The notes below the pieces were generated by a model. That model saw only the letters and a program-made list of their open reading frames with translations, searched no databases and had not been told where the DNA came from. The position numbers were made by a program, and so were the translations under genes. This document shows, piece after piece, positions 6,616-31,882 of a stretch of 64,000 nucleotides of DNA (positions within the stretch are counted from its first letter, which is position 1; each line of letters opens with the position of its first letter). Source of the DNA: Frigoriglobus tundricola. Its GTDB lineage: Bacteria; Planctomycetota; Planctomycetia; Gemmatales; Gemmataceae. Location of the stretch: contig NZ_CP053452.2 in NCBI RefSeq assembly GCF_013128195.2, positions 8,866,001-8,930,000 on the forward strand, read 5' to 3'.

Positions 6616-7267
6616 GGTGCGAGTACCTCCCCGGCTGTCTCCCGGTCCGGGAGTTCATCGGCGGTGACCCCGGACGCGGCAACGGTTGTTCGTCCGAACC
6701 CGGGCGTTCCCCGGCGGCGGTGCCCAGACGTCGCGTCGAGAACGTTCCGCGCGTCTCGTTCAGTGAAGGGACCGGCACCGACGCACCGGGTCCAGGGGCC
6801 GAACGACCCGACAGGTCAACCGCGAACCGTCAGTTCGCAACAACAATAAATAATTATAATATTAATTATAATTTATTGTCATTTTCACAACAAATCACAC
6901 CCCATCTACGCTTTACACCGACGGCTCGGCAGCCGCACGGCCGAGCCGCTCGGGTGGTCCGAAAATCGCTTCACCGGAAGTCGGTAACACCATATCAGAA
7001 AAACGGCGGCGTGAACAGAAGTAGACGGGACCGTCCGAATTCGACTCAAGAGTCCTGACCAACCGGCGGCACGCACACGGTCCGCACCGCGCCGCTTCAG
7101 ATGGGCCGCCCTTGGCGCGACCGACGTACTCGAGGTACGAAATCGGCGGAGCCGTTTCACACTGTGGTGAACGGTCCAGCCGGACCCGATTCGGCGCCAG
7201 TTCTGTGACGGCGTTCGCCCGACGGGCGAGCGGTTGCAAGTCTGGGGAGGAGGTGTATCACAAGCTC
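6616..7267. other. Divergent intergenic region with an AT-rich island
   Basis: I see no gene here. About 60 bases at 6838-6900 are almost pure A/T (runs such as aataattataatatt) in an otherwise very GC-rich sequence. The region lies between the kinase gene on minus and the dioxygenase fusion on plus, so it most likely holds both promoters. I could not fix a convincing -35/-10 pair. Confidence 0.5.
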
Positions 7268-9172
7268 ATGACCACACACAGCCCCCGGTTGAACGACCTC
7301 ATTTCGCGCCTCGACGACCTGGGCCGCGATGCCACCCTCGCCGGCATCGCCGAGTCGCTCACGACGGCCGCGCTCACGGCCGAGGACGTCGCGCCGTTCG
7401 TCCGCTCGAACCCGGCCATGTATCACCGCGCCCGGGTGGTGCAACGGGGCCATTACGAACTGCTCGTGATGACCTGGTTGCCGGGGCAGGCCAGCGAGCC
7501 GCACGACCACACCGGAGCCGTGTGCGCGCTCCAGGTGATCCGGGGCGCCGCGGTGGAGGGCGAGTACTCCGTCGCCCCGGACGGGTTCGCCGATCTGGAG
7601 TACGAGAGCCTGGTGCGCACCGGGCAGGTGACGGCCGGCCAGGACGGCGGGGTCCACACCGTCCGCAACCCGTCCGCGTCCGACCTCCTTGTCACCGTGC
7701 ATGTGTACGCCCCGCCGCTGGGCGAGGTGCGCCGGTACACGTGCCGACCGGGCTCGTCGGTGCCCCGGCCCCGATCCGACGGTCCCACGGCGCTGGTGGT
7801 CGGGGCCGGGTTCAGCGGCACGATGACCGCCGCGCACCTGCTCCGCTGCGCCCCGCAGTTGAATGTCGTACTCGCGGAGCGGCGGGGCTCGCTCGGCGAG
7901 GGCGTGGCCTACGGGACGCGTGACGCGGCCCACCTGCTGAACGTGCCCGCCGCGCGGATGAGTGCCTGGCCCGACCGCCCGACCGACTTCCTCGAGTGGG
8001 CCCGCCGGCGCGACCCCGCCGTTCACCCGACCGACTTCCTCCCCCGGCAGTGGTACGGCGACTACCTGCGGGACACGCTCCGCTCGACCGCCCGGCAGTC
8101 GCGCGGGCGACTCGACCTGATACTCGGAGAGGTGCGCCGCGTGGCCCGCCACCCCGACGGCGGGTGGATGGCCCACTTCGACCACGGCCCTTCGTTCCGG
8201 GCGGACGTTGTTGTGCTGGCCATCGGCCACCGCCCGCCGTCCGATCCGCTCCGCGGGGTGTGGGCCGGCCCGCGGGACCGGTTCATCCCCGACCCGTGGC
8301 GGCCGTTCGCGGTCGGAACCGTCCCGGCCGACGAGCCGGTCGCCATCCTCGGCAGCGGGCTGACGGCAGTGGATACCGTTCTGTCACTGTGCCAGACGCC
8401 CCGCTCGGCCCCGATCACCCTCATTTCGCGAAAGGGGCTCCTGCCCCACGCCCACGCCACCGCTCCGGTAACCCCGCAAGATCTCGCGGCATTCGTGAAC
8501 GAGTTGCTCGGAACCGGCCCCTCGCCGCGCGCCGCCGCACTCTCGTGCGGGATCCATCGCCGGGCGCGCAAACTCATAGCCGACGGCGGGGACTGGCGAT
8601 CCGTGGTCGACGGTCTCCGCCCCCACACCGCGCGACTCTGGCAAGCCCTGTCCCCGAGCGAACGGAGCCGGTTCCTGAGTCGGCTCCGGCCGTTCTGGGA
8701 GGCCCACCGCCACCGGATGGCCCCACAAGTGGCAGACCGGTTGGCCGAGTTGCGGCGGAGCGGGCTGGTCGAGTTGGTGGCGGGTCAAGTAGTTGGGACG
8801 CAGGCGTCACCGGACAACGTGCGCCTGGACATCGCACCGCGGAGGGGCGGCCCGTTGGTGTCACGGGCGGTCGGGTGGGTGATCAACTGCACCGGCCCGG
8901 CCCCGTCGAACCGTCCCGAGGCGAACCCGGTGATCGGATCGCTGTTGATCCACGGGTGGCTCACCCGGGACGAGTTGTCACTCGGCCTGGAAGTGGCTCC
9001 CGATGGCCAGGCGGTGGGGGCCAACGGGACAGCGGTCACCGACCTGTTCGTCGTCGGCACGTTGCGAAAACCTCAGACCTGGGAGAGTACGGCCGTGCCC
9101 GAGTTACGGCTTCAGGCGGCCGATGTGGCCGCCCGGATCGCGAACCGCTACCCGGCCGACGTGGGCCTCTGA
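7268..9172 (+). CDS. Cysteine dioxygenase-like domain fused to FAD/NAD(P)-binding protein
   Basis: This is a two-domain cytoplasmic protein of 634 residues. Residues 1 to about 165 match the cupin fold of bacterial cysteine dioxygenase, which oxidises cysteine to cysteine sulfinate with Fe(II) and O2. The three metal histidines can be seen as H79 and H81 (PHDHTG) and H130 (GGVHTVRN), followed by VTVHVYAPP. Residues from about 175 to the end form an FAD/NAD(P)-binding domain of the NAD_binding_9 type, with a first dinucleotide motif VVGAGFSGTM and a second Rossmann motif AILGSGLTAVD. The reading frame is open from 7112, but 7268 (ATG) is preferred: the encoded cupin begins shortly after and GGGGAGGAGG lies at 7244-7253. 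The substrate could be another thiol. The fusion may couple thiol oxidation to a flavin monooxygenase or reductase step, which is inference. Confidence 0.8.
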   Translation: MTTHSPRLNDLISRLDDLGRDATLAGIAESLTTAALTAEDVAPFVRSNPAMYHRARVVQRGHYELLVMTWLPGQASEPHDHTGAVCALQVIRGAAVEGEYSVAPDGFADLEYESLVRTGQVTAGQDGGVHTVRNPSASDLLVTVHVYAPPLGEVRRYTCRPGSSVPRPRSDGPTALVVGAGFSGTMTAAHLLRCAPQLNVVLAERRGSLGEGVAYGTRDAAHLLNVPAARMSAWPDRPTDFLEWARRRDPAVHPTDFLPRQWYGDYLRDTLRSTARQSRGRLDLILGEVRRVARHPDGGWMAHFDHGPSFRADVVVLAIGHRPPSDPLRGVWAGPRDRFIPDPWRPFAVGTVPADEPVAILGSGLTAVDTVLSLCQTPRSAPITLISRKGLLPHAHATAPVTPQDLAAFVNELLGTGPSPRAAALSCGIHRRARKLIADGGDWRSVVDGLRPHTARLWQALSPSERSRFLSRLRPFWEAHRHRMAPQVADRLAELRRSGLVELVAGQVVGTQASPDNVRLDIAPRRGGPLVSRAVGWVINCTGPAPSNRPEANPVIGSLLIHGWLTRDELSLGLEVAPDGQAVGANGTAVTDLFVVGTLRKPQTWESTAVPELRLQAADVAARIANRYPADVGL

Positions 9173-14471: not shown

Positions 14472-15371
14472 TCAGTGCGTTGAAGACCCCGACAGCGAGA
14501 AGCGCGGTAGCATCACGATCCAGTGACGGACGACCCATCCACCCCCGAGTGCGGTCGCGGCAACGGCCACATCCACAACAGGTCCGTTGAACAGCAGAAG
14601 AATCAACGGAAAGAGGCCGCCGACACCGAATACCAGTGCTGCCGCCACCATCATCTGCTCACGTGTCCGCCGCTGAGCGAGAGCGGGTTTTAATTCTCGT
14701 GCGAGGAGCGCGAGAGGCACGAACTGAATGATCATGAGTGCAACGACTGCGGGGCGCAGGGCACCGGTTGCTGCGGGGCTCCTCAGGATTGCGGCCAGAG
14801 CCAGGAGGAGTGCGCTGCCCAGCGCGAAGCCTGACGCGACGTGATACGCACCCAACCACCGGGCATCGCGCCAGCCGGGCTGGGAACTGGTGCTGAACAA
14901 CACGCCCTTGTACGCCATCGACCCGAACGCAAACGGTAGCGCGAACACGAGCAAGCCCTTGTGTATCCACCCGAGAGTGGCCGAATCACCTGGCAGCACG
15001 CCAACGAGGACCGCCAGACCGATCACGACCACGGCCGCCAGAGGAAGCGAGTACGTGGTGAGGCACCACGTCCCCAGCGACATCGGGGAACTCGGCTTGA
15101 ACACCCGGAGCATGTGGTGGAAGCGCAACGGATCGCCCAGGTCAAGAACCAGGAACGTGAGGTCGGTCAGGAGCAATACCAGTGCGAGTGGATACGCCCA
15201 TACGGCGATCGACGCGAACGCGGACGGGGCCGCCAGCTCGCCAACGGCCGCCGTTAGAAACAACCCGGTGGTGAGCGCATTGAAGAACAGGTCCCACACG
15301 ACCAGTCCGTGCCACGGGACCGGTTGGGTCGGCTCCTTCGCGGTGTAGCCGGCGGCGGTCGGTGCGTTCAT
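14472..15371 (-). CDS. NrfD-like quinone-interacting membrane subunit of formate dehydrogenase
   Basis: This 299-residue integral membrane protein has about eight hydrophobic helices. The start PWHGLVVWDLFFNALTTGLF and the segment DLGDPLRFHHMLRVFKP match the NrfD/PsrC family. These subunits pass electrons between a periplasmic or cytoplasmic iron-sulfur protein and the quinone pool without heme. It replaces the cytochrome b subunit found in E. coli FdnI. The stop of the iron-sulfur subunit gene lies one base before its start codon, so the two are translationally coupled. It is the last gene of the operon and ends before the strong hairpin at 14400. Confidence 0.88.
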   Translation of the reverse strand: MNAPTAAGYTAKEPTQPVPWHGLVVWDLFFNALTTGLFLTAAVGELAAPSAFASIAVWAYPLALVLLLTDLTFLVLDLGDPLRFHHMLRVFKPSSPMSLGTWCLTTYSLPLAAVVVIGLAVLVGVLPGDSATLGWIHKGLLVFALPFAFGSMAYKGVLFSTSSQPGWRDARWLGAYHVASGFALGSALLLALAAILRSPAATGALRPAVVALMIIQFVPLALLARELKPALAQRRTREQMMVAAALVFGVGGLFPLILLLFNGPVVDVAVAATALGGGWVVRHWIVMLPRFSLSGSSTH

Positions 15372-15372
15372 A

Positions 15373-16437
15373 TCAGCCCCCCGCCAGAAGGAAGGACAGC
15401 GCCAGCACTACCAGACCAATGAGCCCGGCCGCAACCGAGCGGAGATAGTCGCCGCGCATGTGAAGCCACGGGTTCACCGGCTTCGGTGGCAGCCCGTACA
15501 CTTCGGGCTCGTCCACGAGCAGGTAAAACGAGTTCAGCTCTGAATACGTCTCGGTCGCCTCCGCGCCGTACAACTTCGCGTCCACGCCTTTCGCGCGCAG
15601 ATCGGCAACGCGTTTTTCTGCCCGCTCGCGCAGTTCGGTCACCGGCCCGAACTGGATCGACGCCGTCGGGCACGCCTTCGCGCACGCCGGCACGAGCCCG
15701 TCCTTCTGCCGGTCGTAGCACAGGGTACACTTGTGCGTGTGCCCGTCGTAATGGCTGCGGGTGATGACACCGAACGGGCACGCGGCCACGCAGTAGCCGC
15801 ACCCGTTGCAGATGTCCGCCTGGATGTAAACGTTGGCGTACTCGTTGTAGAGGATGGCGCCCGTCGGGCACGACTGCTGGCACGGGGCCGTGACGCAGTG
15901 CTTGCACACGTCCGACATCATGAGCCACCGCGCGAAATCCGGCTTGGCCGGCGCAACGGGCGTGGGCAACACATCGAGCGGAAATCGCGCCGGGGACTCG
16001 GGCTGCGGACTCGCAGGTGCGGGCATCGAGTCAGGCGACGGAACGGGGTTCGAGGGGGAACCCGGGGGGGGCTCCTCCTTCTCAGGCGGGAACTGTTCAA
16101 TGAACTTGACGTGGCGCCACGATTCGGCGGTAAGAGCGCCGGTGTTGTCGTAACTGTTGCCGCTGAACTCGAACCCGTCGGACGGGAGCTGGTTCCACTG
16201 CTTGCACGCCACCTCGCACGCCTTGCAGCCGATGCACACGGTGGTGTCGGTGTAGAACCCGGTGGCCGCGTGTGGCGCGGGGCGCGCGCCGCGCCGGAAC
16301 GGGTACGTGAGGCGGTGCAGGATCACGGCGAGCAGCCCGACCGCACGGGGCGACTCTACGCTCTGCGGCGTGGCGCCGACCCTCAATTCGTTCGCGAGGA
16401 CCGGCCCTGCACCACCGACCTGGTTGTCAGCCGCCAT
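15373..16437 (-). CDS. fdhB: Formate dehydrogenase iron-sulfur (beta) subunit
   Basis: This 354-residue electron-transfer subunit has four [4Fe-4S] cysteine groups: CIGCKACEVACK, CKHCVTAPCQQSCP, CNGCGYCVAACPFG and CTLCYDRQ with CAKACP. The last 30 residues form one membrane helix (AAGLIGLVVLALSFLLAGG), as in FdnH-type subunits that anchor to the membrane partner. A proline-rich insert of about 45 residues (EEPPPGSPSNPVPSPDS and following) separates the first and second cluster groups and is unusual. The ATG overlaps the end of the catalytic subunit gene by 11 bases, which indicates translational coupling. It transfers electrons from the molybdenum subunit to the NrfD subunit. Confidence 0.9.
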   Translation of the reverse strand: MAADNQVGGAGPVLANELRVGATPQSVESPRAVGLLAVILHRLTYPFRRGARPAPHAATGFYTDTTVCIGCKACEVACKQWNQLPSDGFEFSGNSYDNTGALTAESWRHVKFIEQFPPEKEEPPPGSPSNPVPSPDSMPAPASPQPESPARFPLDVLPTPVAPAKPDFARWLMMSDVCKHCVTAPCQQSCPTGAILYNEYANVYIQADICNGCGYCVAACPFGVITRSHYDGHTHKCTLCYDRQKDGLVPACAKACPTASIQFGPVTELRERAEKRVADLRAKGVDAKLYGAEATETYSELNSFYLLVDEPEVYGLPPKPVNPWLHMRGDYLRSVAAGLIGLVVLALSFLLAGG

Positions 16438-19400
16438 GCGAGAAGCCCCCTTCGGGTTGTGCGGACCGGGGGGTCGTCGGAATCGGCTCGGAGGTCGGCC
16501 ACGGCACCGCCGGCTTCGTCGGCACGGGGGACTTCCCGGCGTGTCGGCCGGGTGCCACCTGGCAGGCGAACACCTTACCCTCGTGCATACTGACGTTCGG
16601 CTCGGCGACGATCGCGGTCAGATCGTTCGCGTTCCCGCCCACGACCTCACCGGCAAAAGCCCAGTGGAACGGCAGCCCGACCTGATGAACCACTCGCCCG
16701 TCCACGTGAAGCACTTTGATCCGCCGCGTCACCAGTGCCCGGCACTCGATCGCCCCGCGAGCGGATGTCACCGTCACCCAGTCGCCGTTGCTGACCCCGC
16801 GTTCGGTGGCGAGCGCGGGGCTCATTTCCACAAACATCGCCGGCTGGAGCTCGTTCAGCCACGAATTGAACCGACTCATCGGGCCGCTCAGGTAGTGTTC
16901 CGTGAGGCGGAACGTACACGCGACGATCGGGAACTCCGCACTCGGCGAGGACGCCAGGTGGTTGAGCGGCCCGTCGAACGTGCGGACGGTCGGAGTGACC
17001 GCCTGGCGCGGGTACAGCAGGTTGCCCACCGGCGATTCGAGCGGCTCATAGTGCGTGGGTAGCGGGCCGTCTTTCACGCCCTTCGGCGCGTACAGCCAGC
17101 CGAGCCCGTCCGTTTTCATGATGAACGGCCGGTTCCCGGCGATCGCGGCCATCCCCTTCGCACCCTCTGGCGGCCGGTAGTCGGGCGACTTGGTCGGCTC
17201 GAAGTCCGGCACGTCCGGCCCGACCCACCGCGCCTTCTCGGCGTCCCACCAGATGAACTTCTTCCGCTCCGACCACGGCCGCCCTTCGGGATCGGCGGAG
17301 GCGCGGTTGTAGAGCATCCGGCGGTTCAGCGGCCACGCGAAGCCCCAGGTCGGCTGCACCGGGTTGCCGGGGGTATAGTTCCGCTCGTTGGCCCGGTTAC
17401 GGTCGGGTTCGGGGAACACGCCGCTGTAAATCCAGCACCCGCACGCGGTCGAACCGTCGGCCTTCAGTTCCGAGAAGTCCGCGACCAGTTTCGGGCGCCC
17501 GGTGCGCGGATCGATTTCGCCCAAACGACAGCCGTTGATCTCCTGAAGCACCTTCTTGATGTCCGGCTCGCCTGCGATGCGGCTCGTGGTTCCGTCCGGG
17601 AGCTTCTGCGGGTGATCGTGATCGTAATCCCAGGTGAGGGCGAGCAGCGGGGCGTCCTTCGGGTCGGTCGATCCGGCATAGAGTGCCTTCAGGCGCTTAC
17701 CGAGCTGGTAGATGAACCACGCATCGGAGCGGGAATCGTTCTTCGGGTCGAGCACCTTGTTGTGCCACTGGAGCAGGCGCTGCGTGTTGGTGAGCGTCCC
17801 CTCCTTTTCGACGTGGCTCGCGGACGGGATGAAGAACACCTCGGTTTTGATGTCCTTCGGGGACGGGCCGTTCGGGTCGTCCTTCCAGAACACCGCGCTC
17901 TCGGTCTCGAACCAGTCGGCCACGACCAGCCATTCGAGGTTGCGCAGGGCGGCGCGCTGGAGGCCGGCGTTCATGCCGCCCCCGGCCGGGTTCTGGCCCA
18001 GGAGGAAGAACCCGGTCATCTCACCGCGGGCCATGCGGTTGAAGGTGACGAGGTGCGAGTGGTCACCCTTCACGCGCGGGAGCCAGCCGAACCGGTAGTC
18101 GTTCTCGGGTCGGGCGGCGTCGCCGTAGTACGCTTTGAGCAGCGACACGATGAACTTGTCGAAGTTCGCCCAATAGCCGGTCGGCATCCCCTCCTTCGCG
18201 ATGTAGTCCGCGAGCTTCTCGTGGTCGGCGTCCGCGACAGGCTGCGGCAGGTAGCCGGGCAGGAGGTCGTAGAGCGTCGGAACGTCGGTGCTGCCCTGGA
18301 TGCTGGAGTGGCCACGCATGGCCATGATGCCGCCGCCCGGCCGCCCCATGTTGCCCAGGAGCAGTTGCAAAATGCCCGCGGTGCGGATGATCTGCACGCC
18401 GGTCGTGTGCTGGGTCCAGCCGACGGCGTACACGATGGCGCTCGTGCGCTCGCGACCCGAGTTGGCGCACAGCAGCTCGGCCACGCGGGTGATTTCCTCC
18501 GGCCGGCAGCCGCACACGGCCGCGACCGCCTCCGGCGTGTAGCGGCTGAAGTGTCGACGGAGGATCTGCATCACGCAGTGCGGGTGCTGGAGCGTCGGGT
18601 CGTGCTTCGCTTTCCCGCCGTGGTCGGCCCCGCCCATCTGACCGTAGCCGTGCGTGCCGTGCTGCCCCGGTTCGGACTTCTTTTGCGCAGACCCGCCCGC
18701 GCCTTCGTACCCCCACTGACCGGCTTCGGGGTCGTAGGTGCCGCCACCTTCGGAGTGGTAGCCGCTGAACAGGCCCGCGAGGTCTTCGGTGTCCTCGAAG
18801 TCGGGCTCGATTATGGTCGAAGCGTTCGTGTACGCGCGAACGTACTCGTCGAACCACTTCTCGTGGGTCAGGACGTAGTTCACCAGCGCGCCGAGGAACG
18901 CGATGTCCGAGCCGGCCCGGATGCCCACGTACAGATCGCACAGCGCCGACGTCCGGGAGAACCGGGGATCGACGTGAATGAGCGGGGCGCCCTTCTCCTT
19001 GGCTTTCATGGGCCAGCGGAAGCCCACCGGGTGGGCCTCCGCCATGTTGGAGCCCATGATCAGAATGCAGTCACTGTTGGCGAGATCCTGCTGGTAACTG
19101 GTGGCCGCACCGCGACCGAACGAGGCGCCCAGACCGGGCACCGAGGCCGAGTGTCATATTCGCGCCTGGTTTTCGATCGGAACTACGCCCAACCCGGCCG
19201 AGAACAGTTTCTTGATGAGGTAGTTCTCTTCAATGTCGAGCGTGGCCCCGCCCAGGGTGCCGAAGGTGTCCACCGCGTTGAGCACCCGGCCGTCCGGGGT
19301 GCGGGTCGCGAAATCCTTGTCGCGGGCGGCCTTCACCCGGTTCGCGATCTGATCCATTGCCCAGTCGATGGACTTCGTTTCCCACCGGTCGGAGTACGGG

Positions 19401-19738
19401 GCACGGTAGAGGACCTGCGTGACGCGGTTCGAATTGACGGCGAGCTGGAACGCGTTCGCGCCTTTGGGACAGAGCGTGCCCTCGTTGATCGGGCTGCGCG
19501 GGTCGCCCTCAATGTCGATGAGCTGACCGCCCTTTGTGTAAAGGAGTTGTCCGCACCCTACGGCACAGTACGGGCAGACGCCTGGGGTGACGGTCGCCCC
19601 GCGCAACCGCGATCCCTTCGCGCTCGTCTGCGGGCTGAACGGTTGGGGCTTGGATGCAAGCGGCAAGCTGAACACGGTAGCGCCCTCTATGCGGTGCAAG
19701 TGCCTGCGTTCACATGATACCGTAATTCCGGACGACAT
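16427..19738 (-). CDS. fdhA: Formate dehydrogenase catalytic subunit, selenocysteine-containing (in-frame TGA)
   Basis: This is a molybdopterin (bis-MGD) formate dehydrogenase that oxidises formate to CO2. The frame is open from 19738 to 16427 except for one TGA at 19154-19156, codon 195. The context NQARI-U-HSASVPGLGASFGRGA is that of FdnG/FdhF, where the Mo ligand is selenocysteine. The N-terminal [4Fe-4S] motif CPYCAVGC followed by GTLCPKG is present. Downstream features include EAHPVGFRWPMKAK, HVDPRFSRTSA and the C-terminal dinucleotide-binding domain. Total length is about 1,103 residues, close to FdnG (about 1,015). I see no clear twin-arginine leader at the N-terminus, so the cellular side is uncertain; the start codon could lie elsewhere. 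It heads a three-gene operon. Automatic annotation would split it into two genes. Confidence 0.92.
19124..19156 (-). promoter_or_regulatory. Selenocysteine codon and bacterial SECIS hairpin
   Basis: The TGA lies at 19154-19156. Eleven bases further along the mRNA, GGTGCCC (19142-19136) pairs with GGGCGCC (19130-19124) in a 7-bp stem with one G-U pair. The loop is GGTCT. The same GGUCU loop bases are those read by SelB in E. coli fdhF/fdnG. Distance and loop fit a bacterial SECIS, so the codon is probably decoded as selenocysteine. Confidence 0.85.
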
Positions 19739-22994: not shown

Positions 22995-25900
22995 TTAAAT
23001 CTTTCCAGGGTCTTCGTTTCCGTTTCCCAAAATGACCCGTACCGTGTGTTCTCTCCCATCATCGTTTAAGGGGATCGTGTTCTTAGGCAATCGGTTGCCG
23101 TCTAACCAGGTTTCTGCGACTCCACTTTCGACGCCACGAGGGTTCTCGATCCGACAGTGGTAGAGTGTCGAACCGTGGCGGTACTCCACTTCGAACCCGG
23201 TCCACCCCGCCGGAATCCGCGGGTCGAACGACAGGTCGTGCCCGCGCTTGGTAAAGCCGAGTAGCGTTTCGAGCGCGGCGCGATAGAGCCACGCGGCCGA
23301 GCCGGTGTACCACGTCCACCCGCCGCGCCCGACGTGCGGCGGTAAGCCGTACACGTCCGCCGCAACAACATACGGCTCGACCTTGTACCGCGCCACGCCG
23401 TCCGGCGTTTCGGCGTGAGAGAGGGGGTTCAACATGTTCCACACGGCGAGCGCTTCGCCGCCGCGGCCCAATCCGGCCAGCGCCTGGACCAGCCAGATCG
23501 CCGCGTGCGTGTACTGACCACCGTTCTCGCGCGTCCCCGGAACGTAACCCTTGATGTAGCCGGGGTGGAGCGGACCCTTATCGAACGGCGGCTCGAAGAG
23601 TTTTACGAGCCGCGCGTCGCGGTCCACGAGGTATTTGACGGCCGCTTCGACGGCTTGCCGCGAGCGTGCGGGATCGCCGGCCCCAGAAATGACGGCCCAC
23701 GTCTGGGGGAGCGAATCGATCCGGCACTCCTCGCTGGCGCGCGAGCCGATCGGGGTGCCGTCGTCGAACCACGCCCGCAGGTACCACTCGCCGTCCCAGG
23801 CGTGGGCCTCGATCGCGGTGAGCAGTTGCTCGACCTCGGCCCGGAGGCTCTTGGCCGTTTCCGCGTCGTCTCGGGACTCGGCCACCGCGGCGAAGGCGGT
23901 CCGAACGAGCACCTGGAACCAAGCCACCCATACGCTCTCGCCTTTGCCCCCGACGCCGACGAGGTTCATCCCGTCGTTCCAGTCCCCGCAGCCCATAAGA
24001 GGCAGCCCGTGCGACCCGAGCTTCCAGCCGTGGGCGAAGGCGCGGCGACAGTGGTCATAAAGGGTTTGGGGCTGGTCGGTTACATCCGGCTGGAAGTATT
24101 CCTCCTGCTCTTCCGGCTTCAGGGCCGGCCCGCGCAGGTATGGCACCTCCTCCTCCAGGATCTTCGCGTCCCCCGTAACGGTGACGTAGCGGGCAACCGC
24201 GTAGGGGAGCCACAGGAAGTCGTCCGAGAAGCGGGTGCGGACGCCGCGGCCGGAAGGCGGGTGCCACCAGTGCTGAACGTCGCCCTCCGGGAACTGCCGG
24301 GCCGCCGCACGGAGGATCTGTGCCCGTGCCTCGCCCGGCTCCGCGTAGAGCAGCGCCATTACGTCCTGCAACTGGTCCCGGAACCCGTACGCGCCGCCGG
24401 ACTGGTACAGCGCCGATCGCCCCCAGACCCGGCACGAGAGCACCTGATAAGGGAGCCAGCGGTTCACGAGTGCGTCGAGCGCGGGTTCGGGGGTCCGAAC
24501 GCGCACCACCGAGAGCCGCCGGTCCCAGGCCGCGACCACTTCGCGCAGCGCGGCGTCGGCCCGCGCCGGGTCGCGGTACTGCGTCGCCAGCCGGACGGCC
24601 GTTTGCGCGTCGGGCGCCTGGCCGAGGACGAACACCACCTCGACCGCGGCGCCGGTCTGAAGGTCGAACCGGCCCATGAGCGCGCCGCACGGGTCGAGCG
24701 CCGCGCCGGTGTGGTCGCTCAGCCCCACCCGCCGCATGGCCGCCGGGTTGGCGGGGCCGCGGTTGCGCCCCAGGAACTCGCCCCGGTCGCCGCTGACCGT
24801 CCGCGGCCGCAGGTTCGTGTCCGCGAACGCCACCGCCGCGCCGAAATCGTTGTTGAACGCGCACCGGGCGAGGAGCGCGCCGGAACCGGCGTCGATTTCG
24901 GTCACGATGAAGGGCGCCGTCTCGTCCCGGGTGGTGCCGAGCACCCATTCGGCCAGGAACGCGGCCGAGAGGCGCCGCGGCCGGCCGCTGCGGTTGGTCA
25001 CCCGCAGGCGCAGCACCTTCACCGGATCGGCCACCGGGACAAAGACGGTCAGTTCGGTCGCGAGCCCGTCGCGGTCGGCGCTGTAGGACGTGTAGCCGGG
25101 GCCGTGGCGGACGTCGGCCGGGCCGCCCTTCGGGCGCGGGGTGGGGGTCCAGAAGTGGCCCGTCTCCTCGTCGCGGAGATACACCACTTCGGCCGGGGGG
25201 TCGCTGACCGGGTCGTTCGTCCACGGCGTCAGCCGGTTGGCCTGGCTGTTCCCGGCCCAGGTGTAGCCCGCGCCGGAGTCGGTCGCGAGGCACCCGACGG
25301 CCGGGTTGGCGATCACGTTCGCCCACGGGGCCGGCGGCGTACCGGTCACGACGTATTCGCGGGCGTCGGGGGTGAAGCCGCCGGTGCCGTTGAAGAACGT
25401 CAGCCCGGCGATCCGGGGCCGGTCCGCCACCTCCGGCTCGCCCGGCCGCGTGGGGACCAGGTCGGCCGGGAGCCGGCGGCCGCGCGCGACCACGTCGGTC
25501 TGGTCGGCGAGCGTACCGTGATCGCCGTACAGCACCACGCGGGCGGCGGCGAGCAGGAGGGTGCGGTCCTCGCTGCCCGGCTGCACCTTGCGGACGAACA
25601 CCCCGCCCGGTTTGTCGATCACGTCGCGGCTGTCGCTGGAGCGGACGAGCGCGGCGAGATCCTGGTACAGTTCCTCGCGGTAGCTCGCGGGCCGGTCGGC
25701 GAGCAGCACGAGATCGACGGTGAACCCGCGCCCGCGCCAGAACGCGTGGGCCTTGAGCGCCTGGCGGGCGAGCGGCAGCCCGTCGCCGTCCGACACGCAC
25801 ACCGCGAGGATCGGCAGGTCGCCCGAAATGCCGAACCGCCACAGCCCCGGTTGCCCCTGGCGGTTGTCCCGGACGGCGATCGACGCCCGCAGCGCCGCCG

Positions 25901-28900
25901 GCGGGAACAGGACGTGCCCGGCGAGCCGCTGGAACACGTGCGACTCGGCGGGCGAGATGCCGAGGTGCCGCAGCTCGACCCGGCTGCGCGCCCACGCCAG
26001 GTCGAACGCGCGGTCGACGGCGGACGGCACGTGGTAGTGGTCGGCCAAGCCGAGGGCGGCCTCGCGGGTCTGCGACACGGCGGTGACGAACGCCAGCGTG
26101 GCGCTGCCGCCCGCCGGGAGCCGGACCGTCTTCCGCAGCGCGAACACCGGGTCGAGCACCGGCCCGACGGTGCCGGACAGGCGGCCCGTCAGCGCCTCCG
26201 GGTTGGACGGGGTGCGGCGCCGGCCGAGGAACTTCGCCCGGTCCGTCTCGTGCTCGGTCGGGCGGCTGACGCTCTCGTCGCCGGAGGCGACGTGTACGGC
26301 GAACATCGGCTTCTGGTTCGCCGCGCGGGGCCGCCGCCGGCACAGGAGGGCGTCGTACTGCGGCACCCATTCGGTCTCGAGAAACAGCTTGCCGAACGCC
26401 GGGTGGGCGACGTCGGCCCGCTGGTCGTTCAGCACGATCTCCAAATAGCTGGTGACCTCGACCACCTGGGGCCGCAGGTCGTGGTTGGTCACCGTCACCC
26501 GCCGGACCTCGGCGTCCTGGTCCGGGGCGACCGCGACCTCCACGCGGGTCTCGATCGCGCCGTCGCGGCGGCGGAATTCGGCCTTATCGGCAGAAAAGAC
26601 GACCTCGTACTCGTCCGCCCGGACCCCGAGCGGCTGGTGCCCGGCGGACCACTGCTTACCGGTCGCGGGCACGCGGACGTAGAGGAACGTGCCGTGGCGG
26701 TCGCGGGTGGGATCGACCCGCCACCGGGTCATCGCCAGGTTCTGGTACTTGCTGTACCCGCTGCCGGCGTTCGTCACCATCACGGTGTAGTTGCCGTTTG
26801 ACAGCAGGTGGCTCCGCGGGGCGGGCGTGTCGGCCGTTGTCAGGCGGCGGCTCATCTCGGCCGGCGCGTCGGCCGGCGTCGCCCCCTCGAAGTCCACGTC
26901 CGGGGGGCGGACCTCCGGCGCGTCGAGCGGCACCCGTTCCTGGAGCAGCAGCTCGACCGCCCGCACCGCCGGCTCGGCGTCCAGGCGGCGGCAGTGGGCG
27001 TCGTTCAGCAGCCGGTTCGCGATGGCGCACATGGCCATGCCCTGGTGATGGGCCATGTACGACCTCACCACCCGGCACCGCTCGCCCTTGTTCAGCCGGT
27101 CCGGGGTGAAGTCGATCGCCTCGTAGAACCCGTACGCCCCCTCGCCGCCGGCCGCCCGGAGGGCCGCGAAGTTCGCGACCGCGGCCGGTGCGTCGATCAT
27201 CGTGGCGAGCAGCGTCGCGTACGGCGCCACGACCAGATCCTTGCCCAGCCCGCGCTTCAGGCCCAGCCCCGGAACCCCGAACGACTGGTACTGGTAGTCG
27301 CCCTCGGCACTGAGGACGGAGAACCCCGATTCCGAGACGCCCCAGGGCACGCGGGTCTCCCGGCCGTACTCGATCTGTCGGGCCACGGTCGCCTTGTACG
27401 CCACGTCGAGCATCGTCCCCCGGGGCGGGTCCAGGAGCAACCGCGGCATGAGGTACTCGAACATGGTCCCGCCCCATGAGAGCAGGCCGGGCAGCCCGGC
27501 GGCGGACGTGGCGAGCCGGCCGAGCTGGAACCAGTGCTTGCGCGGGACGACGCCCCGGGCGACCGCGAGGAGACTGGTCAGCGCCGCTTCGGAGGCGAGC
27601 AGGTCGTAGTGGCCCGAATCGAGCCGGTCCTGCGAGACGTTGAACCCGATGCTGAACAGGTCGCGGGACTCGTTGAACAGGAACCGGAAGTCCATCGCGT
27701 CGGCAAAGAGGTTCGCCCGCCGGGCCATGCCGTTCAGTTGCGCCACCAGCCGCCCGGCCGCCGAGCGCTCGAGGGCCGCCACAAGGGCGTCCGTGCCGGG
27801 CCGCCCCGCGAGTTCGCCCCGGAGAGCGGGGACGCGCTGTGCCCAGTGCCCCACGCTCGCCGGGGCGTTCAGTTCGGTAAAGGGGCCGGCCGCCCGGTCC
27901 GCCGGCGGAACCGCCCGCAGTTCCGGGAGCCACGGGCACACAACTTCCAGTTCGTCACGCAGACCGCGGACTTGTTCGCCCAGTGTACGCGTCCAGAACG
28001 CGCCGTCCCCGGTGAGGACGGGCAACTCGGCGGCCAATTTTGCCGCCCGTTCCAGCCAATCGGCCCAGCCAATCAGATCGGCGGGTGTCGATGCGAAATG
28101 CGCCCGCAGCGCGTCCGTGGTGTTGGCCGGGAGCGACTCCTGGGCGAGGGCCAGGGTGTCGCGCAGGCCGCCCGGTGCGGCCGGCGACGGGACCGGCTCG
28201 TCGACCTTCGCGAGCAGGCCGTTCTTCAGCGCGAGTAGGCAGCCCAGGAAGTTCCCACTGTCCACGGTCGAGACGTACTCCGGCGGTAGCGCGCGGAGGG
28301 TCGTCGTTTCGTACCAGTTCAGGAAGTGCCCGCGGTACCGCTCCATCCGGTCCAGGGTGTCGAGCGTCCGACCGACGCGCTCGACGAGACCGGTCAGCGG
28401 GATGTAACCGAGGTCGTGGGCCGAGAGCGTCGAGAGGAACAGCAGCCCCTTGTTGGTCGGCGAGGTGCGGTGGGCGACCACGCCCTTGGGATCTTCCTGG
28501 TAGTTGTCCGGCGGGAGCCAGTTGTCCTCGGCCGTGACGAAAGTCTCGAAGAAGCGCCACGTCTTGCGGGTGGTCCGGCGCAGCTCGGCGGTGTCGGACT
28601 CGGTGAGAGGCGCCTCCGCGACGCTCAGCGGCCGACTGACCCACCACGCGACGACCGGCGACAGGAGCCACGCCAGCACCCACGGCGCGGCGGCCGGCAG
28701 GGCGCCGGGGTTGACCCACGCGAGAAGTCCGCCGAGCACCGCGGCCAAGGCGACCGCGGGCCACATCGATTGGAAGAACTGGCGCAGCCCCGTTCCGAGC
28801 CGGGCTTCCGCCGCCGCCGCGGTTTCCCATTCCAGCATCAAGCGGTGCGAAACGACCAGCCGGTAAAGGGTGCGGCCGATCGCGTCGAGCGCCAAACGCG

Positions 28901-31517
28901 CCTGGTTCGGCAGGAACGCGGCGGTAAGAACGACCTGTCCGATCGAGGCCGGCAGGCTCTGCCGCGCGCCGCGGAGGACCGCCCGCGGCGTACCGCTCGT
29001 CACCACGCCCGTGAGGATTTCGAGTAGTTGGAGCACGAGCGGGGCGGCGAGGACGCCGAGTGCCGCGAGCGCCCACGCCCACGCGGGCGCCGGCAGCACG
29101 GTCCAGCCGAGCGCGAGCAGGAGCACGACTCCGGCGGGGACGAGGCTGCGGCGCAGGTTGTCGAGAACCTTCCACCGCCCGAGCGCGGTCACCACGTTCG
29201 GCTCGCGGCCGGCGGGCGTCGGCACCGTCCGCCCGAGCCACGGGAGGAGCTGCCAGTCGCCGCGCACCCAGCGGTGCTCGCGCTTCGCGTAGGCGTGGTA
29301 CTTCGCCGGGAAGTCGTCGAACACCTCGACGTCCGTGACCAGCCCGCAGCGGGCGAAGTTCGACTCGATCAGGTCGTGGCTCAATACGGTGCTGTCGGGG
29401 AACGCGCGGCCGGCCGAGGCGTGGAACGCGTCCACATCGTACAGCCCCTTGCCCGTGAAGGTGCCCCACCCGAAGAGGTCCTGGTACACGTCCGACGACG
29501 CGCTGGAGTACGGGTCGATCCCCGCCGAGCCGGCGAAGACCCGCGCGAACCGGGACCGCAGGCCGGTCTTGTAGAGGAAGCTGACCCGCGGCTGGAGCAC
29601 GCCGTAGCCCGCCACGACGCGCCGGCCGTCGGTAGACAGTACCGGGCGGTTGAGCGGGTGCGCGAGCGTCGCCACGAGCCGGCGCGCCGCGTCCCGCGGC
29701 AGCACCGTGTCCGCGTCGAGCGTCAGCACGAATTTGGCTTCGAGCGCGGCCGCGTCGCCGGTCCGCACGGTGTAACTCGTGTCCGCCGCGCCGCGGAGGA
29801 GACGGTTAAACTCGTCGAGCTTGCCGCGCTTGCGCTCCCACCCCATCCACACCCCTTCGGAGGGGTTGAACAGGCGCTTGCGGTGGAACAGGAAGAACTT
29901 GTCCGGCCCGTTCCGGGCGTGTCTCCCGTTCAACCGACGGATTTCGTCGGCCGCGGCTTTGACGAGCGCCTCGTCGTCGGGCGCCGTCTCGCTCGGGGCG
30001 TCGGCCCAGTCGGTGAGCAGCGCGAACCGGAACTGGGGGTCCGGGTTGGCGAGGTAGTGCAGCTCCAGCCGCTCGCAGAGGGCCGTCACGCTCTCGGGCC
30101 GCGTGAGCATACCGGGAATGACGACGACCGTGCGCCAGTCGCCCGGGACGCCGGCCGCGAAATCGAGCTTCGGCAACACCCGCGGCGGCAACACGCGACA
30201 GACGAGTGCGTTCACCACGGCGACCGCGACCTCGCCGGCCGGCAAAAAAACCGCCAGGGCAACGAGCACGAGCAGCCCGGGGGCGGCCCCGGCGGCCGCA
30301 CACAGCCCCACTGCGAGCGCGACGAGTGCGGCGGTGACCAGCGCCAGCCCGCCGAAGTAAACGGTGTGAGGGTAGTCCGTGAGCGCCGTTCGCCAGCGGT
30401 CGCGGAACGGGAACCGGCACCCCAGTTCGCGGGCGAGCGCCGCGCGGCCCTCGGCCACGAGGTGGTAACCGACGTGCCGCTCACGGGGCGTCGTGCCCGC
30501 GGCGGCTCGCGCCACCGCCCGCCGGGCCACTTCCACCTCGTTTCGCTTCGCGGCTTTCGCCAACTGCTCAACGGCCCTGCGGTACCGGTCGCGGGTGGCG
30601 AGTTCCTGGCGCAGGTACACGCCGGTCGGTTCGGTCCGGAGGGCGTCTTCGACCAGGCTGGTCCGCTCGAAGAACGCGCTCCAGTCCACCGCGTTGAGCA
30701 ACCGCAGGCTGGTGACGCAGTTGCCGACGGACACCTGATTGGCCGCCTGGCGGCGGTGCTCGCGGCGCAAGACTTCGGTCAGGTCGCCCGCGACGTCCCA
30801 GACGATGGCCGGGGTCTCGCCGAGGTCGCGGACCGCCTGGTGCCAGCCGACCAGGAACGCGTCGGACGGGTCGGCCGGCAGCGGCGGCACGCGGCCGGTG
30901 GCCGCGCGCCGAACCCAGGCGACCGCCCGCTCCCGTTCGGACCGCGTGGTCAGCATCTGCCCGGCGAGCCGCCGGAGGTTCTCGAGGAGCGCCAGCCGCA
31001 GCATCGTGGGCACCGCCCACAATTCGCCGGTGGTGAGCGGCGTCACCTCCTGGTAGGCGCGGACGAATCGCAGCACCTGTGCGTCGTCAATGTGGCTGTC
31101 GGTGTGGGAGACGAGCGCGACGGCGAGCCCGTACACCCGCGGCAGCCCCGCCCACGCCCCGCCCCCGGCCACCGGTAGCTCGTCGGCGTACCCGCGCGGC
31201 AGGTCGGTTTTCACCTCGCGGAGCACGTCCTCGATTACAAAGAAGTTGTCGAGCAACCACTCCGCATCTGGCATCAGGGGTTCGGTCCGCGCCGTGGCCG
31301 CGGCCGCGTCGCGCGCCTGGCGGAGGACCGCGCCGTTGTCGCGGAGCCGGCGAAGGAGCGGGCGCGAACCGTGTGTCCCGGTCGCCCGTGTCGCCCGAGC
31401 CAGTGACCGGGCGAGGTCCGCAAGGTGGTCCGCGCCGAAAAGTTCCGCACGGAACGGCTCGTTCGGGTGAACACTGAGAGCGACGTGAGGAGGCGCGTCG
31501 GGGGGTGATAGTTCCAT
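22995..31517 (-). CDS. ndvB: Cyclic beta-1,2-glucan synthase-like protein (NdvB/Cgs type; GT84 plus GH94)
   Basis: This is a giant membrane protein of 2,840 residues, a typical length for NdvB/Cgs (about 2,830-2,870). Its members use UDP-glucose to build, cyclise and trim beta-1,2-glucan. The start FRAELFGADHLADLARSLA is the family N-terminus, so I choose the ATG at 31517 over the open frame to 31607. Membrane helices flank a glycosyltransferase domain with VVVIPGMLTRPESV, LTLDADTVLP and HRWVRGDWQ. The conserved segment RSYMAHHQGMAM follows. The C-terminal half is two GH94-like (phosphorylase) modules with the catalytic GDWNDGMNLVG and HPGYIKGYVPGTRENGGQ. The linkage type cannot be proved from sequence; other beta-glucans are possible. 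Confidence 0.9.
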   Translation of the reverse strand: MELSPPDAPPHVALSVHPNEPFRAELFGADHLADLARSLARATRATGTHGSRPLLRRLRDNGAVLRQARDAAAATARTEPLMPDAEWLLDNFFVIEDVLREVKTDLPRGYADELPVAGGGAWAGLPRVYGLAVALVSHTDSHIDDAQVLRFVRAYQEVTPLTTGELWAVPTMLRLALLENLRRLAGQMLTTRSERERAVAWVRRAATGRVPPLPADPSDAFLVGWHQAVRDLGETPAIVWDVAGDLTEVLRREHRRQAANQVSVGNCVTSLRLLNAVDWSAFFERTSLVEDALRTEPTGVYLRQELATRDRYRRAVEQLAKAAKRNEVEVARRAVARAAAGTTPRERHVGYHLVAEGRAALARELGCRFPFRDRWRTALTDYPHTVYFGGLALVTAALVALAVGLCAAAGAAPGLLVLVALAVFLPAGEVAVAVVNALVCRVLPPRVLPKLDFAAGVPGDWRTVVVIPGMLTRPESVTALCERLELHYLANPDPQFRFALLTDWADAPSETAPDDEALVKAAADEIRRLNGRHARNGPDKFFLFHRKRLFNPSEGVWMGWERKRGKLDEFNRLLRGAADTSYTVRTGDAAALEAKFVLTLDADTVLPRDAARRLVATLAHPLNRPVLSTDGRRVVAGYGVLQPRVSFLYKTGLRSRFARVFAGSAGIDPYSSASSDVYQDLFGWGTFTGKGLYDVDAFHASAGRAFPDSTVLSHDLIESNFARCGLVTDVEVFDDFPAKYHAYAKREHRWVRGDWQLLPWLGRTVPTPAGREPNVVTALGRWKVLDNLRRSLVPAGVVLLLALGWTVLPAPAWAWALAALGVLAAPLVLQLLEILTGVVTSGTPRAVLRGARQSLPASIGQVVLTAAFLPNQARLALDAIGRTLYRLVVSHRLMLEWETAAAAEARLGTGLRQFFQSMWPAVALAAVLGGLLAWVNPGALPAAAPWVLAWLLSPVVAWWVSRPLSVAEAPLTESDTAELRRTTRKTWRFFETFVTAEDNWLPPDNYQEDPKGVVAHRTSPTNKGLLFLSTLSAHDLGYIPLTGLVERVGRTLDTLDRMERYRGHFLNWYETTTLRALPPEYVSTVDSGNFLGCLLALKNGLLAKVDEPVPSPAAPGGLRDTLALAQESLPANTTDALRAHFASTPADLIGWADWLERAAKLAAELPVLTGDGAFWTRTLGEQVRGLRDELEVVCPWLPELRAVPPADRAAGPFTELNAPASVGHWAQRVPALRGELAGRPGTDALVAALERSAAGRLVAQLNGMARRANLFADAMDFRFLFNESRDLFSIGFNVSQDRLDSGHYDLLASEAALTSLLAVARGVVPRKHWFQLGRLATSAAGLPGLLSWGGTMFEYLMPRLLLDPPRGTMLDVAYKATVARQIEYGRETRVPWGVSESGFSVLSAEGDYQYQSFGVPGLGLKRGLGKDLVVAPYATLLATMIDAPAAVANFAALRAAGGEGAYGFYEAIDFTPDRLNKGERCRVVRSYMAHHQGMAMCAIANRLLNDAHCRRLDAEPAVRAVELLLQERVPLDAPEVRPPDVDFEGATPADAPAEMSRRLTTADTPAPRSHLLSNGNYTVMVTNAGSGYSKYQNLAMTRWRVDPTRDRHGTFLYVRVPATGKQWSAGHQPLGVRADEYEVVFSADKAEFRRRDGAIETRVEVAVAPDQDAEVRRVTVTNHDLRPQVVEVTSYLEIVLNDQRADVAHPAFGKLFLETEWVPQYDALLCRRRPRAANQKPMFAVHVASGDESVSRPTEHETDRAKFLGRRRTPSNPEALTGRLSGTVGPVLDPVFALRKTVRLPAGGSATLAFVTAVSQTREAALGLADHYHVPSAVDRAFDLAWARSRVELRHLGISPAESHVFQRLAGHVLFPPAALRASIAVRDNRQGQPGLWRFGISGDLPILAVCVSDGDGLPLARQALKAHAFWRGRGFTVDLVLLADRPASYREELYQDLAALVRSSDSRDVIDKPGGVFVRKVQPGSEDRTLLLAAARVVLYGDHGTLADQTDVVARGRRLPADLVPTRPGEPEVADRPRIAGLTFFNGTGGFTPDAREYVVTGTPPAPWANVIANPAVGCLATDSGAGYTWAGNSQANRLTPWTNDPVSDPPAEVVYLRDEETGHFWTPTPRPKGGPADVRHGPGYTSYSADRDGLATELTVFVPVADPVKVLRLRVTNRSGRPRRLSAAFLAEWVLGTTRDETAPFIVTEIDAGSGALLARCAFNNDFGAAVAFADTNLRPRTVSGDRGEFLGRNRGPANPAAMRRVGLSDHTGAALDPCGALMGRFDLQTGAAVEVVFVLGQAPDAQTAVRLATQYRDPARADAALREVVAAWDRRLSVVRVRTPEPALDALVNRWLPYQVLSCRVWGRSALYQSGGAYGFRDQLQDVMALLYAEPGEARAQILRAAARQFPEGDVQHWWHPPSGRGVRTRFSDDFLWLPYAVARYVTVTGDAKILEEEVPYLRGPALKPEEQEEYFQPDVTDQPQTLYDHCRRAFAHGWKLGSHGLPLMGCGDWNDGMNLVGVGGKGESVWVAWFQVLVRTAFAAVAESRDDAETAKSLRAEVEQLLTAIEAHAWDGEWYLRAWFDDGTPIGSRASEECRIDSLPQTWAVISGAGDPARSRQAVEAAVKYLVDRDARLVKLFEPPFDKGPLHPGYIKGYVPGTRENGGQYTHAAIWLVQALAGLGRGGEALAVWNMLNPLSHAETPDGVARYKVEPYVVAADVYGLPPHVGRGGWTWYTGSAAWLYRAALETLLGFTKRGHDLSFDPRIPAGWTGFEVEYRHGSTLYHCRIENPRGVESGVAETWLDGNRLPKNTIPLNDDGREHTVRVILGNGNEDPGKI

Positions 31518-31882
31518 TCGGGGCACGTTCCTCGCATAGTTCTGGTAGGATTTCGTTGTGAGCAAACTCAGTGCCGTCCGCCGATGGCCCCTCCCCTCCG
31601 ATCTCACTCGGTCGTTAGTAGACGGAACGATTGCGCGCCCCGCGAGCCATCACTGCGTGGTGCGAACTGCCACACACGGCAAGAAAAGCCGGTCGCTCTG
31701 ATGTTTACGGCGCGAGGGTTGCTAGCTGCCTAGCCGACGTCGCGAGTGACGTTTGATTCCGTCGGACCCGCAGCTCGGTCCGATCGCCGACACGAGTCGT
31801 GATCCGACCTTTAGGCCCTATTCACGAAAATTGAGAACTTCGACGCCGAGCCTTCGGTTCGGGCCGTGGAGATCAGACGCTC
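31518..31882. other. Divergent intergenic region
   Basis: This 365-base gap lies between the glucan synthase gene (minus) and the HEAT-repeat gene (plus) and must hold promoters for both. I see no clear consensus promoter, hairpin or small gene in it. Confidence 0.4.

What the first reader, a model, noticed from the sequence alone, without database searches (positions are those of the whole stretch)
19124..19738. Selenocysteine formate dehydrogenase with a SECIS hairpin in a planctomycete-like genome
The catalytic subunit frame is broken only by a TGA at 19154-19156, exactly where FdnG/FdhF enzymes carry selenocysteine (NQARI-U-HS). Eleven bases downstream a 7-bp stem with the loop GGTCT forms, the same loop bases that SelB reads in E. 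coli. The two pieces would normally be annotated as two genes. The Sec machinery (selA, selB, selC, selD) must then exist elsewhere in the genome.
Basis: partly seen in the sequence, partly recalled or inferred. Interest (0 to 1): 0.75.

Follow-up and report, generated by a model that had tools for sequence, protein, structure and literature searches.

The report
Selenocysteine formate dehydrogenase in a planctomycete
The gene is an ordinary selenium-using formate dehydrogenase whose internal "stop" codon is most likely read as selenocysteine, in a bacterium that carries the machinery for it; it is a new example of a well-known kind.

Summary
On the minus strand a formate dehydrogenase alpha gene (19738..16427) is interrupted only by TGA at 19156..19154; 11 nt later comes a 7-bp hairpin with loop GGTCT (19142..19124). 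Of 33 distinct genes read at this codon (the window's own included) 30 have TGA, 3 TGC. In 12 close genes synonymous constraint peaks over the hairpin. The genome holds tRNA-Sec (anticodon TCA), selA, selB, selD, scattered, and fdhD.

Additions: the likely start is GTG at 19675 (Sec = residue 174). The operon has a Fe-S subunit and an NrfD-type anchor; alpha lacks a Tat signal. FDH does not explain the family's Sec trait: of 95 Gemmataceae genomes, tRNA-Sec is in 77, SelA in 85, FDH in 14. A commoner selenoprotein, SelW-like, is in the window's genome and, with an in-frame TGA, in 73 of 95. Seventeen genomes have machinery but neither gene. Sec-FdhA is the most widespread bacterial selenoprotein, and Sec genes in Gemmata are in print.

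The parts
16427..19738 (-). fdhA (alpha, molybdopterin/Fe4S4, selenoprotein); read-through 1103 aa from ATG 19738, probably 1082 aa from GTG 19675
19673..19675 (-). probable true start codon GTG (relatives start about here), GAGGG 7 nt upstream (inferred)
19154..19156 (-). TGA codon read as selenocysteine (residue 195 from the ATG, 174 from the GTG)
19124..19142 (-). bacterial SECIS hairpin, 7-bp stem GGTGCCC/GGGCGCC with loop GGTCT
15373..16437 (-). fdhB, Fe-S subunit with one C-terminal hydrophobic stretch (residues 331-354)
14472..15371 (-). NrfD-type membrane subunit, probable quinone-side anchor

Best explanation
It is a selenocysteine-containing, membrane-attached formate dehydrogenase. 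During translation SelB carrying Sec-tRNA(Sec) binds the hairpin just after the UGA and inserts Sec at the molybdenum site; the hairpin is kept in the coding sequence by selection on synonymous sites. The alpha subunit oxidises formate to CO2, electrons pass through the Fe-S beta subunit to an NrfD-type membrane subunit and into the quinone pool. Shown by sequence: the TGA, the hairpin, its conservation, the genes of the machinery and the operon. Inferred: actual Sec insertion, formate as substrate, quinone as acceptor, and location on the cytoplasmic side (no Tat signal).
For: TGA at the Sec codon in 30 of 33 distinct genes. Synonymous constraint peaks on the hairpin, rank 1 of 271 windows in 12 genes. 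Stem pairs are kept through changes on both sides, e.g. outer G-C to A-U in L032, and CGTCCCC/GGGGACG in L041. The Cys homolog L254 keeps only 3 of 7 pairs. tRNA-Sec, selA, selB, selD and fdhD are in the genome. A second TGA gene in the same genome, SelW-like, carries a hairpin with the same GGTCT loop. E. coli K-12 fdhF and fdnG have TGA at the aligned codon, and fdhF carries GGTCT at the same offset. NCBIfam and PDB matches include Sec-containing FDHs.
Against: Hairpin energy alone is unremarkable. The genes compared are related, so the counts are not independent. In the register used for the window, E. coli fdhF forms 0 of 7 pairs and fdnG 5 of 7, so the element is similar, not identical, to the E. 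coli ones. Two of 14 FDH-bearing family genomes lack a tRNA-Sec hit (G018, G089; 82 and 84% complete). G009 has only a partial FDH match (residues 345-766) with an in-frame TAG. No expression or protein data exist here.
Confidence: 0.96

Rival explanations
1. The TGA is a true stop: a pseudogene or a gene split into two.
For: Mechanical ORF calling gives two ORFs in the frame.
Against: TGA is kept at the same codon across phyla; the codons between the TGA and the next start (HSAS) are part of the conserved, synonymously constrained stretch; the close relatives align through the codon at 72-80% identity; the second piece alone would lack the Fe4S4 domain.
Confidence: 0.02
2. Read-through by an ordinary near-cognate tRNA or a reassigned UGA, without Sec.
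For: None specific.
Against: The genome has a dedicated tRNA-Sec with anticodon TCA and selA/B/D; the alpha frame itself ends with TGA, so UGA still serves as a stop.
Confidence: 0.02
3. Sequencing error turning Cys TGC into TGA.
For: Cys homologs exist: L254, L267, L269.
Against: The same TGA occurs in 13 of 13 family genomes whose gene covers the codon; the hairpin is intact here but only 3 of 7 pairs in L254.
Confidence: 0.005

Closest known systems
FdhA selenoprotein family (TIGR01553; NCBIfam NF041513)
   Same: Profile match above cut-off, TGA at the Mo-ligand codon, SECIS just downstream.
   Different: The review's motif is UHxP (passage); here it is UHSA.
E. coli FdnGHI (formate dehydrogenase N)
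   Same: Alpha 38% identical over 7-1061, TGA at the same codon; beta 36% identical.
   Different: No Tat signal on alpha; the third gene is NrfD-type, and it found no match at E <= 1e-4 in the fdnGHI locus.
Actinobacterial and alphaproteobacterial FDHs (Nonomuraea, Arthrobacter, Indioceanicola, Chelatococcus) and the Rhodococcus equi alpha-beta-NrfD complex
   Same: 48-52% identity and no clear Tat signal peptide, judged by eye, in the four read; the R. equi paper describes an alpha-beta-NrfD set (passages).
   Different: Two of those four carry Cys (TGC) instead of Sec; three of the four have an RR pair or RRSFL near the N-terminus; the R. equi authors argue for a degenerate Tat signal (passages).
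Sec-FDH of planctomycete P1 from Porphyra (PMC4807772)
   Same: Planctomycete selenoprotein fdhA in a genome with scattered sel genes (passages).
   Different: There fdhA is in an operon with nuoEF; here with fdhB and an NrfD-type gene.

Membership tests
Bacterial selenoprotein FdhA | In-frame TGA at the Mo-ligand codon, conserved in homologs | tested here: met
   30 of 33 distinct genes TGA, 3 TGC
Bacterial selenoprotein FdhA | SECIS hairpin immediately downstream with G in the apical loop | tested here: met
   7-bp stem, loop GGTCT; synonymous constraint rank 1 of 271 windows; energy alone not significant
Bacterial selenoprotein FdhA | selA, selB, selC, selD in the genome | tested here: met
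Bacterial selenoprotein FdhA | Family profile match above the curated cut-off | tested here: met
   TIGR01553 1009.6 vs 814.2 bits; NF041513 1459.6 vs 1400
Bacterial selenoprotein FdhA | Selenocysteine present in the protein; formate oxidation | not testable with these tools
   needs protein data
FDH-N (FdnGHI type) | Tat signal on alpha | tested here: not met
   no twin-arginine motif match and no hydrophobic stretch in alpha
FDH-N (FdnGHI type) | FdnI-type cytochrome b gamma subunit in the operon | tested here: not met
   third gene matches Pfam NrfD only; an FdnI-type gene elsewhere in the genome was not searched for
FDH-N (FdnGHI type) | Fe-S beta subunit with C-terminal membrane helix | tested here: met
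   4Fe-4S domains; hydrophobic 331-354; but TIGR01582 scores 149.9 bits, below its cut-off 334.7

The most novel reading that the evidence does not exclude
The enzyme is a Tat-less, cytoplasm-facing, NrfD-anchored Sec formate:quinone dehydrogenase (12 of the 14 FDH genes read in this family lack the Tat motif), riding on a Sec trait that Gemmataceae keep for other selenoproteins: a SelW-like redox protein in most genomes and, in the 17 of 95 that have machinery but neither gene, selenoproteins not identified here.
Probability: 0.5. Interest if true: 0.42.

Novelty: new member of a known kind. Interest (0 to 1): 0.27.

Why it matters
It gives strong grounds to treat this TGA as a recoding site and to annotate one gene of about 1082 residues. 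The wider survey shows that tRNA-Sec or SelA is found in 90 of 95 sampled Gemmataceae genomes although FDH, the commonest bacterial selenoprotein, is in only 14; what keeps Sec in this family becomes directly testable.

Tried and rejected
Rfam scan of the window at gathering thresholds found nothing; no tRNA in the window. Folding energy as evidence was dropped (z -0.55). A codon-usage scan of 2.39 Mb of relative G024 for read-through ORFs with a hairpin gave 41 candidates; I judged most of them chance by eye, followed only the SelW-like one, and did not test the other 40. Sec in SelD as the reason for keeping the trait: of the 17 genomes with machinery but neither gene, SelD (E <= 1e-30) was found in 13, with an in-frame TGA only in G054, whose position was not checked; the window's own SelD has Cys. 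A Tat loss unique to planctomycetes was rejected: four actinobacterial or alphaproteobacterial homologs also lack a clear Tat signal peptide. A Fisher test of SelW-TGA against machinery was not significant (p = 0.33); three genomes (G039, G077, G082) have SelW-TGA but neither tRNA-Sec nor SelA hits. SelB was searched in the window's own genome only. The SelW hairpin search tried many registers and had no chance control. Paper searches listed no title on this gene; passages of four papers were read, a fifth had none of the terms, no paper was read whole, and the supplements of PMC4807772 were not seen.

Full report
What is there. On the minus strand, 19738..16427, one frame encodes a formate dehydrogenase alpha subunit broken only by TGA at 19156..19154. 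Mechanical ORF calling splits it into 194 and 904 residues. Read through, it passes the NCBIfam cut-offs of NF041513 (1459.6 bits) and TIGR01553 (1009.6 bits) and has the Fe4S4, molybdopterin and dinucleotide-binding Pfam domains. Solved relatives include chains named selenocysteine-containing formate dehydrogenase alpha subunit.

The hairpin. TGA is followed by an 11-nt spacer, GGTGCCC, GGTCT, GGGCGCC (19142..19124). The fold of the 52 nt contains this 7-bp stem, but the energy is ordinary for the composition (z -0.55, 55 of 200 shuffles as good). Comparison is stronger. Of 28 distinct genes whose match covers the codon (the window's own and two of E. coli included; duplicates L038, L039, L040 removed; L036 does not reach it), 27 have TGA and one, L254, has TGC. 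Of 5 plasmid-borne homologs read, out of 148 records matched, 3 have TGA and 2 TGC. In one search, 16 of 17 genes from this family (14 genes), Thermomicrobiaceae (L041) and one other planctomycete family (L256, L257) form 7 of 7 pairs (L034: 6), including pairs kept by changes on both sides. The nine other planctomycete or bacterial homologs there range from 5 to 7, except L254 (Cys), which forms 3; E. coli fdhF forms 0 and fdnG 5 in this fixed register. For the 12 genes of the family over 65% identical (L033 and L034 left out), the 9 codons with unchanged residues among 196-209 are the most synonymously constrained of 271 windows, as expected for an RNA signal inside a coding sequence. Redrawing synonymous codons gives a full 7-bp stem in 6-12% of draws per full-stem gene of the family, so one gene alone would not prove it.

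Machinery. In the window's own genome (9.86 Mb, two contigs): tRNA-Sec, 74.7 bits, anticodon TCA; SelB, 345 bits with the SelB winged-helix domain; SelA, 550 bits; SelD, 386 bits, a Cys form. They lie at about 6.24, 7.98, 6.66 and 0.35 Mb, far from each other and from fdhA (8.88 Mb). FdhD is at 8.99 Mb.

Start, operon and side of the membrane. Relatives begin at M-F-S-L-P or similar, matching GTG 19675 in the window, with GAGGG 7 nt upstream; the protein is then probably 1082 residues with Sec at 174. Genes for a Fe-S subunit with one C-terminal hydrophobic stretch and for an NrfD-type protein follow. The window's alpha has no twin-arginine motif match and no hydrophobic stretch. In a tree of 27 sequences 12 of the 14 genes of this family plus L256 and L257 lack the motif, while the other two of the family (L033, L034), L041, E. 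coli fdnG and eight of the ten phylum homologs have it (L042 is cut short); the unrooted split between the two sets has support 0.948. Four plasmid-borne homologs from Actinomycetota and Alphaproteobacteria also lack a clear Tat signal peptide, judged by eye: three have an RR pair or RRSFL near the N-terminus but no evident hydrophobic region; Thermomicrobium has a clear one. So the Tat-less form is wider than this family. Location on the cytoplasmic side is inference.

What keeps selenocysteine in this family. In 95 genomes of the family, FDH (E <= 1e-100) is in 14, tRNA-Sec (E <= 1e-9) in 77, SelA (E <= 1e-80) in 85. Of 81 without FDH, 65 have tRNA-Sec and 71 SelA; of 14 with FDH, 12 and 14. 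Outside the family, 10 of 293 other genomes drawn from the phylum have an FDH match at E <= 1e-150. A scan of about half of the FDH-less relative G024 pointed to a SelW-like gene. The Rdx family is in 76 of 95 genomes, in 73 with an in-frame TGA. Of 31 loci read (30 of the family matches plus the window genome's own), 30 have TGA and 1 TGC at the CxxU position; 29 of the 30 have a stem of 5 or more pairs nearby, in a search over many registers without a chance control. The window's genome has one at 369688, about 18 kb from selD, with stem GGCCGTC/GGCGGCC and loop GGTCT. Seventeen genomes have tRNA-Sec or SelA but neither FDH nor a TGA-containing Rdx match; 4 of them are under 90% complete (G002, G005, G026, G086), so genes may be missing, but G051, G074 and G087 are single contigs (G051 and G087 have partial Rdx matches without TGA). 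SelD was found in 13 of the 17 and has an in-frame TGA in one. G049 and G094 have no hit to any of these, SelD included. Five genomes have neither tRNA-Sec nor SelA; three of them (G039, G077, G082) still have a TGA-containing Rdx match, which incomplete assemblies may explain.

What is known. A 2026 review calls FdhA the most widely distributed bacterial selenoprotein family (passages, PMC13188914). A 2016 paper reports full Sec gene sets in Gemmata obscuriglobus and a Sec fdhA in another planctomycete (passages, PMC4807772). A 2006 survey lists FdhA first, with 103, and SelW-like with 10 selenoproteins (passages, PMC1794560). The finding is therefore a new member of a known kind; the distribution pattern and the unexplained 17 genomes are the more interesting leads.

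Noticed in passing
L264 (G000:C1:369688-369903): Second selenoprotein gene in the window's genome: SelW-like (CxxU) with a GGTCT-loop hairpin, about 18 kb from selD.
   Followed up: yes
17 genomes listed, e.g. G074, G087, G051 (single contigs): Sec machinery without FDH and without a TGA-containing SelW-like match: other selenoproteins may be present.
   Followed up: partly
L001:120-1340 (-): A tyrosine-recombinase-like gene (Phage_integrase) lies beside tRNA-Sec, so selC may be an integration site.
   Followed up: no
G036, G037, G066: Rdx matches with two in-frame TGA codons; possibly two Sec residues.
   Followed up: no
G023, G072, G073: SelD matches lie in long open frames (739-890 residues), which may be fusion forms.
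   Followed up: no
G009:C2:78602-79852 (L036): A partial FDH match with an in-frame TAG, perhaps a decayed gene.
   Followed up: no
window 22995-31607 (-): A giant 2870-residue frame with GH94 domains; a glycosyltransferase match is below its cut-off.
   Followed up: no
window 7205-9172 (+): Cysteine dioxygenase-like domain and an FAD-NAD(P)-binding domain in one protein.
   Followed up: no
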